35,675 bases of DNA from Nitrospira sp. (GTDB taxonomy: Bacteria > Nitrospirota > Nitrospiria > Nitrospirales > Nitrospiraceae). The position numbers and the translations under genes are program-made. The notes under the pieces were generated by a model. That model saw only the letters and a program-made list of their open reading frames with translations, was not told where the DNA came from and made no database searches. Positions 4,142 to 5,938 of this stretch are shown here, piece by piece (within the stretch, counting starts at the first letter, position 1; each line of letters opens with the position of its first letter). The DNA lies in assembly GCA_023248215.1 (NCBI GenBank), contig JAHFEW010000045.1, positions 1-35,675 of the forward strand, read 5' to 3'.

Positions 4142-5530
4142 ATGAAAAACCGGAAATCAGCCGGCAAACCTGCCCCTGAAACCAGCGCGTCGGAGATCCC
4201 ATTCGAAGTCACGGTCCACCCGGAGTCGGACGGCAAATCGGTCTTCGAGAGCGAATTGCTGCCCACCACGGCAAACCTCGACCGCTACCGCGTTCCGCTT
4301 GACAAGATGGTCGAGACTTCGCGCCTGCTCCAGCGGCAACACATCGTCGTGCACAACGTCTCGGAATTCAGCATCTCGGCATCCTGTTCGGCCAAGCAGT
4401 TCGAGGCCTTGTTTCGCACACGGCTCGTCAAAAAACCGATGCCTAAGCAAGGCTTCCACGTAGCCACCGTGAAGTCTTACCTGGCGCCGGACACTCGGGT
4501 GCTCCCGCCTGCCGTTGAAGGGCTCGCCGATCTCGTCGAGCGCGTCTATGTACAGCCGCCGGCGATCTTCTTCGCCGGAGAACGACCGATACCGCCATTC
4601 TGGAATGACAAGTACCGCCTGCGTGTGCCGGTGGATGTGGCGGACATCATGCGCGCCAACGAGGTGCATCAGCACGGCCTCACGGGCAAAGGCATCCGAG
4701 TGGCCATGCCCGACACCGGGTTCTACCATCATCCGTACTTCCAGGGGCAGGGCTACAACTTTCTGGCCATCACCGCACCGGATGCCACCGATCACACCAC
4801 CGATGGGAACGGTCACGGGACCGGCGAGTGTGCAAACCTTTTCGCAACCGCGCCAGGCATCAACTTCATCGGGGTGAAAATGGGGGCAAATCCCACGCTC
4901 GCTTTCAAGACGGCGACAGATTTGCGCCCGCACGTGATGACGAACAGTTGGGGTTACAGCGTTGATGTTCCCAACTCGACGATGCCGAACTTCCTCGTGC
5001 CGCTCTACCTGGCGGTGCTCGATGCGGTCTCAAAGGGCATCACCGTCTGCTTCTCCGCCGGCAATGGTCACTTCGGATTCCCCGGCAGTATGCCCGAGGT
5101 GATCAGCGTCGGCGGCGTGATCGTGGATCAGAACCTCAACTACTCCGCCACAAAATACACCAGCGGTTTCGACTCGACGTGGTTCCCCGGTCGGCGCACG
5201 CCAGACGTATGCGGGCTATGCGGCGAGTTGCCCACCGCCGACTACATCGTGCTGCCCGTGCAAAGCGGCGCCGCCCTTGACAAGCAGGGCGGATGGGGCG
5301 CATTCAGCGGCACCTCAGCAGCCAGCCCGATGGTCGCCGGCGTCTGCGCGCTGCTGAAAGAGGCCGATCCCACCTTGACACCGGATCAGGTCAGGAACAT
5401 CCTGAAGTACACAGCACGCGACATTCTCGTCGGCACAAACGCCCATGGAAAAATCGCCGGCCCTGGTCCCGATGGCGCCACCGGCTTCGGCCTCGTTGAT
5501 GCCGCACGTGCCGTCAACGTGTTGCTTTGA
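4142..5530 (+). CDS. Subtilisin-family (S8) serine protease with N-terminal pro-domain
   Basis: This 462-residue protein has an N-terminal pro-domain (about residues 20-145) and a subtilase catalytic domain (about 160-460). The catalytic triad is visible: Asp191 in VAMPDTG, His225 in DGNGHGTG and Ser392 in SGTSAASPMVAG, with the oxyanion Asn308 in FSAGN. The pro-domain, with DRYRVPLD, FSISASCSA and FEALFRT, resembles the kumamolisin-type activation domain more than the usual S8 inhibitor I9. No signal peptide precedes it, so export, if any, is unexplained. GGGAGG lies four bases before the ATG. The next gene, 63 nt downstream, is a stand-alone relative of this pro-domain. An element shared with the tyrosinase and sheath genes lies upstream. 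The fold and the active site are certain; the substrate is unknown. Confidence 0.93.
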   Translation: MKNRKSAGKPAPETSASEIPFEVTVHPESDGKSVFESELLPTTANLDRYRVPLDKMVETSRLLQRQHIVVHNVSEFSISASCSAKQFEALFRTRLVKKPMPKQGFHVATVKSYLAPDTRVLPPAVEGLADLVERVYVQPPAIFFAGERPIPPFWNDKYRLRVPVDVADIMRANEVHQHGLTGKGIRVAMPDTGFYHHPYFQGQGYNFLAITAPDATDHTTDGNGHGTGECANLFATAPGINFIGVKMGANPTLAFKTATDLRPHVMTNSWGYSVDVPNSTMPNFLVPLYLAVLDAVSKGITVCFSAGNGHFGFPGSMPEVISVGGVIVDQNLNYSATKYTSGFDSTWFPGRRTPDVCGLCGELPTADYIVLPVQSGAALDKQGGWGAFSGTSAASPMVAGVCALLKEADPTLTPDQVRNILKYTARDILVGTNAHGKIAGPGPDGATGFGLVDAARAVNVLL

Positions 5531-5593
5531 CCGTCCGCACAAGGAATATTGCGCGGGCCGACCGATCGACCCGCGCCCGGGCCTTTCCTAGCC

Positions 5594-5938
5594 ATGCCTG
5601 ACTCCACCGTTTCATTTGAAATCCTTCTGCGCACGGCCGGCAGCGGCCAACTCCCCACGGCACGGACCATTGACCGCTTCCGACCTGATCCGGAAATCAT
5701 GGAGTCCTGTCGACGCTGGCTTCACGCGCATGGCGTCGTCGCCCACCCGACAGGCTTCAGCCTGGCTTGCTCTGCCGCGCCTGCGGTGTTCGAGTCGCTG
5801 TTCGGGGTGAAACTGGTCGCGCTCGACCCTGTGCCGGGCGTCCCCAGGTGGCGCATCGAGGGCGCGCTGCGCGTTCCGGAAACACTCTCCGCGTGGGTCG
5901 AGGACGTGACGCTGCCACCGCCGCCTGAATTCTTGTAG
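5594..5938 (+). CDS. Free-standing protease pro-domain homologue (candidate inhibitor or folding chaperone)
   Basis: This 114-residue protein is collinear with residues 20-140 of the protease just upstream. Both begin with an FE strand (SFEILLR / PFEVTVH), then DRFR / DRYR, then FSLACSA / FSISASCSA, then FESLF / FEALF, and end in a proline-rich V-x-x-P-P segment. It has no catalytic domain and no signal peptide. Subtilase pro-domains act as intramolecular chaperones and tight inhibitors, so a separate copy probably controls the neighbouring enzyme; that is inference. I chose the ATG at 5594, where homology starts. A TTG at 5549 has AAGGA just upstream and could extend the protein by 15 residues. 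The pair is probably co-transcribed. Confidence 0.8.
   Translation: MPDSTVSFEILLRTAGSGQLPTARTIDRFRPDPEIMESCRRWLHAHGVVAHPTGFSLACSAAPAVFESLFGVKLVALDPVPGVPRWRIEGALRVPETLSAWVEDVTLPPPPEFL

What the first reader, a model, noticed from the sequence alone, without database searches (positions are those of the whole stretch)
4142..5938. Subtilase followed by a separate gene for its own pro-domain
The 114-residue downstream protein is collinear with the protease pro-domain (FE strand, DRxR, FSxxCSA, FE-LF, V-x-P-P end) and has nothing else. Pro-domains fold and inhibit subtilases, so a trans copy would make a two-gene protease/inhibitor (or protease/immunity) switch. The pro-domain looks kumamolisin-like although the catalytic triad is S8, and neither protein has a signal peptide. 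This is the best candidate in the window for an undescribed system.
Basis: partly seen in the sequence, partly recalled or inferred. Interest (0 to 1): 0.72.

Follow-up and report, generated by a model that had tools for sequence, protein, structure and literature searches.

The report
Protease paired with separate pro-domain inhibitor
A bacterial protein-cutting enzyme that already carries its own built-in safety cap is encoded next to a second gene that makes a free-standing copy of that cap, and the same pair recurs in widely separated microbes, which points to a portable protease and inhibitor switch.

Summary
Window 4142-5530 encodes a 462-aa S8 subtilase with an intact triad and its own N-terminal pro-domain. 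Sixty-three bases downstream, 5594-5938 encodes 114 aa that match that pro-domain end to end (BLASTP E=5e-9; profile-profile probability 98.7%) and nothing else. It is not a local duplication. All 15 relatives of the protease scoring above 330 bits have the small gene beside it or, in two cases, one gene away. They come from Pseudomonadota, Bacteroidota, Planctomycetota, Actinomycetota, Cyanobacteriota and Thermoplasmatota genomes. In one family of 27 genomes the same 4 carry both genes and 23 carry neither. The small proteins evolve under purifying selection and mirror their protease's phylogeny. Most end at the residue aligned with the predicted P1 cleavage position, or carry one extra residue, usually proline. 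Most likely the small protein is a product-mimicking trans inhibitor that holds a signal-peptide-less protease silent. This works like PopC/PopD of Myxococcus and resembles Aeromonas ASP/ORF2, but here the protease keeps its own pro-domain. Inhibition is inferred; docking could not be modelled, and homology to PopC/PopD could not be tested. New variant of a known kind.

The parts
4142..5530 (+). S8 subtilase gene, 462 aa, 49.5 kDa, no signal peptide
4196..4573 (+). cis pro-domain (residues 19-144), kumamolisin/I9-like beta-alpha-beta-beta-alpha-beta fold, ending at predicted P1 residue F144
   Evidence: AF2 pLDDT mostly 75-91 with dips to 45-63; structural matches to zymogens 1t1e, 3afg, 3whi; profile match to the trans protein; P1 assignment by length against subtilisin propeptide is inference
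4574..5530 (+). catalytic domain; D191 (4712-4714), H225 (4814-4816), oxyanion N308 (5063-5065), S392 (5315-5317)
   Evidence: Pfam PF00082; residues invariant in A2
5531..5593 (+). 63-nt intergenic gap, no + strand promoter or terminator match; in frame with both genes, no further stop codon
5594..5938 (+). trans pro-domain gene, 114 aa, 12.5 kDa; C-terminus PPPPEFL aligned to the cis P1 position

Best explanation
A conserved two-gene module: a cytosolically made (signal-peptide-less) subtilase zymogen and a dedicated, separately encoded pro-domain-like inhibitor. The small protein has the same ferredoxin-like pro-domain fold as the protease's own N-terminus. It most likely packs on the active-site face of the protease as a pro-domain does, with its C-terminal residues lying in the S4-S1 subsites as an uncleaved or already-cleaved product. 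The cis pro-domain would serve folding and first-round autoinhibition. The trans copy, which ends at P1 or carries a Pro at P1' in several relatives and so cannot be cut there, would keep the matured or misfired protease silent inside the cell until it is removed (by degradation, dilution or export), as PopD does for PopC. Shown: homology, predicted shared fold, gene linkage, co-inheritance, purifying selection and the C-terminal register. Inferred: binding, inhibition, cellular location, trigger and substrate.
For: Full-length homology of small protein to cis pro-domain. AF2 gives the same order of elements in the cis pro-domain and in the trans protein (residues 341-454 of the fused model, mostly pLDDT 65-93). 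15 of 15 relatives above 330 bits carry the partner, found by protease-first and by small-protein-first searches. 4 of 27 genomes of one family have both genes, 23 neither. Trans and catalytic-domain identity matrices correlate (Mantel r=0.71, p=1e-4 for all 15 loci; r=0.63, p=0.009 for the core 7), and the core cis and trans trees show the same groupings. Purifying selection on the trans gene, dN/dS 0.16-0.26. 6 of 15 trans proteins end exactly at the column aligned with P1; 6 have one residue more, of which 4 are Pro; one has 2 more and two have 6-8 more. In the cis pro-domains the residue after P1 is never Pro. No conserved third gene in the core clade.
Against: No direct evidence of binding or inhibition. 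The catalytic domain was poorly predicted (overall pLDDT about 50 with 7-11 rows), so docking could not be judged. The P1 assignment rests on alignment length with subtilisin propeptides. Two RiPP-cluster members (L034, L035) run 6-8 residues past P1. Nonomuraea and Calothrix copies lack the first strand as annotated. More distant homologues in rhizobial plasmids (31-33% identity) and a broken Paenibacillus copy have no partner, so the protease fold alone does not require it.
Confidence: 0.7

Rival explanations
1. External folding chaperone (foldase), as ORF2 for Aeromonas ASP: the small protein mainly templates folding of the protease, and inhibition is incidental.
For: Same architecture: small gene directly 3' of a subtilase gene, C-terminus thought to contact the active site (ASP/ORF2, PMC5638518). 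Pro-domains of subtilases are known intramolecular chaperones (general knowledge).
Against: Unlike ASP, every protease here that has the partner keeps its own full pro-domain with a plausible cleavage junction, so a folding template is already in cis. Several trans copies carry Pro at P1', which suits a lasting inhibitor better than a transient foldase.
Confidence: 0.13
2. Toxin-immunity or toxin-antitoxin module: the protease is the harmful element and the small protein its immunity protein, spread as a mobile conflict unit.
For: Rare, patchy occurrence (1 of 175 genomes of the family has this type); recurrence across phyla including a Thermoplasmatota genome; self-contained pair without conserved neighbours; trans protein evolves about twice as fast as the cis pro-domain or more.
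Against: No secretion or delivery domain, no polymorphic toxin architecture, no phage or plasmid context seen in the core clade; only a generic subtilase hit in PADLOC. Trans and protease trees agree rather than showing immunity swapping.
Confidence: 0.12
3. Maturation protease of a peptide pathway whose activity is timed by the small protein, as suggested by the sister clade in radical-SAM RiPP-like clusters.
For: In G107 and G562 the protease, a RiPP maturation radical SAM C-methyltransferase (TIGR03975, 442 and 644 bits) and the small pro-domain protein lie in one cluster. Weak similarity to QhpE and PatA/PatG maturation proteases.
Against: No radical SAM or precursor-like gene next to the core clade including the window.
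Confidence: 0.05

Closest known systems
PopC/PopD of Myxococcus xanthus
   Same: Subtilase of 50.8 kDa without signal peptide, N-terminal part without recognisable domains, in an operon with a downstream gene whose start lies 1437 nt after the popC start (computed from PMC4320627; here 1452 nt); [quoted passage not shown]
   Different: PopD is not described in the texts read as a pro-domain copy. The FtsH-type trigger, secretion and substrate are unknown here.
ASP/ORF2 of Aeromonas sobria and relatives in Vibrio, Shewanella, Chromobacterium, Pseudoalteromonas
   Same: Subtilase with a separate downstream gene; ORF2 inhibits ASP (IC50 84 nM) and its C-terminal residues contact the catalytic centre (PMC5638518).
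   Different: ASP is extracellular and propeptide-deficient and needs ORF2 to mature; here the protease keeps its own pro-domain and has no signal peptide. No sequence match to an ORF2 entry in the PDB profile searches.
Subtilisin propeptide-like inhibitors, MEROPS I9 (for example Plasmodium SUB1-ProM; fungal POIA1)
   Same: Free-standing protein with a pro-domain fold; SUB1-ProM is a potent SUB1 inhibitor (PMC6993865, title and abstract; POIA1 from general knowledge).
   Different: Those are eukaryotic; the sequence here is closer to the kumamolisin (S53) activation domain and the gene sits beside its protease.
Pro-kumamolisin activation domain (PF09286, PDB 1t1e)
   Same: Best profile match of the trans protein and best structural match of the full protease model.
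   Different: Kumamolisin is an S53 sedolisin with the pro-domain in cis only; here the enzyme has an S8 triad.

Membership tests
Peptidase family S8 (subtilase) | Pfam PF00082 above cut-off with D-H-S order and oxyanion Asn | tested here: met
   96.4 bits vs 21.8; D191, H225, N308, S392 invariant in 7 sequences
Pro-kumamolisin activation domain PF09286 | score at or above the curated cut-off | tested here: not met
   small protein 22.0 bits vs 23.5; 8 of 11 trans proteins hit it at E up to 0.1; cis pro-domain alone not hit. Not filed as a member.
Subtilase-type pro-domain (fold) | beta-alpha-beta-beta-alpha-beta ferredoxin-like domain | tested here: met
   AF2 elements E19-25 H53-65 E69-73 E78-82 H84-91 E132-137 and E346-352 H373-385 E389-392 E396-401 H403-410 E442-446; a prediction, not a solved structure. 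The trans region itself was barely tested in the structure search.
Propeptide-like protease inhibitor | pro-domain without a protease domain | tested here: met
   114 aa, no other domain
Propeptide-like protease inhibitor | inhibits the cognate protease | not testable with these tools
   needs an assay
PopC/PopD | protease without signal peptide and downstream small gene | tested here: met
   PMC6434023, PMC4320627
PopC/PopD | sequence homology to MXAN_0206 and MXAN_0207 | not testable with these tools
PopC/PopD | complex formation and regulated degradation of the small protein | not testable with these tools
   needs experiment
ASP/ORF2 | protease lacks its own propeptide | tested here: not met
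   the protease has a full cis pro-domain
ASP/ORF2 | protease is exported by a signal peptide | tested here: not met
   hydropathy of N-terminus max 0.49 over 12 aa

The most novel reading that the evidence does not exclude
A widespread, horizontally moving prokaryotic protease/inhibitor module in which the inhibitor arose by one ancient duplication of the protease's own pro-domain and was turned into a non-cleavable product mimic (chain end at P1, or Pro at P1'). It would unite the core pairs, the RiPP-cluster proteases and possibly PopC/PopD under one regulatory principle and explain the origin of PopD.
Probability: 0.45. Interest if true: 0.72.

Novelty: new variant of a known kind. Interest (0 to 1): 0.6.

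Why it matters
Free-standing pro-domain inhibitors are known mainly from eukaryotes, and the described bacterial subtilase partners (PopD, ORF2) are single cases. A linked, co-inherited pair in at least six phyla, in which the protease keeps its own cis pro-domain, would be a general way for bacteria to carry a cytosolic subtilase safely. It makes specific, cheap predictions: the C-terminal residues of the small protein should set inhibition, and a P1' proline should make it resistant to cleavage. It also offers a testable origin for PopD in C-signal production.

Tried and rejected
Local tandem duplication: rejected, because the core trans proteins group together (99/98) apart from the cis pro-domains and a single origin of all trans copies is not rejected (p-AU 0.249). 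Pseudogene or chance ORF: rejected by conservation in 15 relatives and dN/dS 0.16-0.26. Viral or phage origin: no relatives in IMG/VR or INPHARED. Defence-system filing: only a generic subtilase hit in PADLOC. Conserved third gene in the core clade: none, only generic ABC ATPases among wider neighbours. Small-protein profile hits L012-L014 were YrdC/Sua5-like proteins by their sequence and were discarded. Docking of the small protein: attempted with a read-through fusion (TGA read as W) of catalytic domain and small protein; the catalytic part was too poorly predicted (pLDDT mostly below 50), so no statement is made. In the structure search of the fused model the small-protein region was barely tested because the catalytic domain filled the list.

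Full report
WHAT IS THERE. The window (contig C65 of a 4.69-Mb genome) encodes a 462-aa protein at 4142-5530 (+) and a 114-aa protein at 5594-5938 (+). The first has a Peptidase_S8 domain (96.4 bits) with an invariant triad D191/H225/S392 and oxyanion N308. Its N-terminal part hits nothing significant in Pfam. The second hits only the pro-kumamolisin activation domain, just under the curated cut-off (22.0 against 23.5 bits). Eight of 11 homologues of the small protein hit the same family at E up to 0.1, and the best PDB profile hit is pro-kumamolisin 1t1e (E=0.071 with 7 rows, 0.0043 with 11).

IS THE RESEMBLANCE REAL. The small protein aligns with the protease N-terminus with E=5e-9 and a Smith-Waterman score of 94 against a shuffled maximum of 48. 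In the whole genome the only other convincing match is that pro-domain. A profile of 7 small proteins against a profile of 7 cis pro-domains gives probability 98.7 and E=3.6e-16 over 115 columns, reaching the last residue of the small protein and residue 144 of the protease. AlphaFold2 gives the same order of strands and helices for both. The full protease model matches zymogens best: pro-kumamolisin (Z 10.0), pro-TPP1, ProN-Tk-SP, pro-subtilisin E. Its overall pLDDT is only 49, so only the pro-domain part is trusted.

IS THE PAIR CONSERVED. A protease search of 84,980 species genomes returned six relatives at 60-71% identity, from records titled Rubrivivax, Cytophagales, Pirellulaceae, Thermoplasmata, Hwanghaeella and Alphaproteobacteria. 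All six have the small gene 19-73 nt downstream. More distant proteases have it too. It lies upstream in three Bacteroidota genomes (63 nt), a Thermoplasmatota genome (156 nt), Calothrix (244 nt) and Nonomuraea (32 nt). It lies downstream after one radical-SAM gene in two further genomes. A fourth genome related to the Bacteroidota ones adds another pair. In all, 15 of 15 relatives scoring above 330 bits against the protease profile have the partner. Small-protein-first searches of Pseudomonadota, Planctomycetota and Thermoplasmatota samples found three new loci, all linked to such a protease. In one family of 27 genomes the same 4 carry both genes and 23 neither; by hand this is 1 in 17,550 by chance. 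Distant relatives (31-33% identity, rhizobial plasmids) and a broken Paenibacillus copy lack a partner.

HISTORY. In a tree of cis and trans domains, the seven core small proteins form a supported group (99/98), and the groupings inside it (window with Rubrivivax; the two Alphaproteobacteria; Cytophagales with Pirellulaceae and Thermoplasmata) are the same as in the cis pro-domains. A single origin of all trans copies is not rejected (p-AU 0.249), but deep branches are weak. Distance matrices of small proteins and catalytic domains correlate (Mantel r=0.71, p=1e-4 over 15 loci; r=0.63, p=0.009 in the core). The pair therefore travels together. The small gene is under purifying selection (dN/dS 0.16-0.26) but changes faster than the cis pro-domain (0.05-0.09). 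Core neighbours are not conserved. The small protein occurs in 1 of 175 genomes of the host's own family by direct search, and the same family holds one genome (G107) with the radical-SAM version. This patchy spread, with groupings that cross phyla, suggests transfer as a unit (inference; several records are metagenome bins).

MECHANISM. By length, F144 of the protease corresponds to the P1 residue of the subtilisin propeptide (inference from the known subtilisin junction). Aligned small proteins end exactly there in 6 of 15 loci and run one residue further in 6, that residue being Pro in four. Cis pro-domains never have Pro after P1. In the Bacteroidota type the cis pro-domain reads PPEFH and the trans chain ends in PPEFH or SPEFH at this point. 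A chain that ends at P1, or continues with Pro, cannot be cut there by a serine protease (established enzymology), which is what a product-like inhibitor needs. Because the protease retains a full cis pro-domain, a separate foldase is less needed. The best reading is therefore a trans inhibitor that holds a signal-peptide-less protease silent. This step is inferred: no binding or assay data exist, and the attempt to model docking through a read-through fusion failed for lack of a reliable catalytic domain.

COMPARISON. PopC/PopD of M. xanthus has the same layout: PopC is 50.8 kDa, lacks a signal peptide and has an N-terminal part without recognised domains; PopD forms a complex with it and blocks secretion (PMC6434023). 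The popD start lies 1437 nt after the popC start (derived from PMC4320627), against 1452 nt here. Homology could not be tested. ASP/ORF2 of Aeromonas has a downstream inhibitor/chaperone whose C-terminus contacts the active site (PMC5638518), but that protease lacks its own propeptide, so membership fails. SUB1-ProM of Plasmodium is a free-standing propeptide-like inhibitor (PMC6993865).

VERDICT. Observation confirmed; interpretation partly supported. A conserved, co-inherited protease/trans-pro-domain pair is shown; inhibition is likely but untested. New variant of a known kind, interest 0.6.

Noticed in passing
L034:5942-10433 and L035:5680-10544: Sister-clade proteases sit in RiPP-like clusters: subtilase, radical SAM C-methyltransferase (TIGR03975), small pro-domain protein, and a ~210-aa protein with an HxD...H pattern suggestive of a 2OG-Fe(II) oxygenase (no NCBIfam hit; the L034 copy has no Pfam hit).
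   Followed up: partly
L034:8625-10379, L035:8703-10544, L036:4604-6190: These proteases carry a Pro-rich repeat tail (for example PIKPIQPI) ending in an acidic LSEEDVxxLQDLI-like motif; it might be a substrate or modification region for the neighbouring radical SAM enzyme.
   Followed up: no
L028:1248-7353, L029:1487-7389: Rhizobial plasmid relatives (31-33% identity) lie beside nucleotide-type genes (purH, folE, purA/purB-like, CoF synthetase) and have no small pro-domain gene.
   Followed up: no
window:929-2437: Gene with phage tail sheath domains (PF04984, PF17482) upstream of the pair; whether other tail genes lie nearby was not examined.
   Followed up: no
window:6011-7522: Molybdopterin sulfite-oxidase-type gene whose start (145-aa and 346-aa frames) looks interrupted by a frameshift.
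   Followed up: no
window:7986-9422: Tyrosinase with a twin-arginine signal, downstream of the pair.
   Followed up: no
window:5549-5594: Alternative TTG start at 5549 with an AAGGA motif close upstream would extend the small protein to 129 aa; the ATG at 5594 matches the relatives better.
   Followed up: partly
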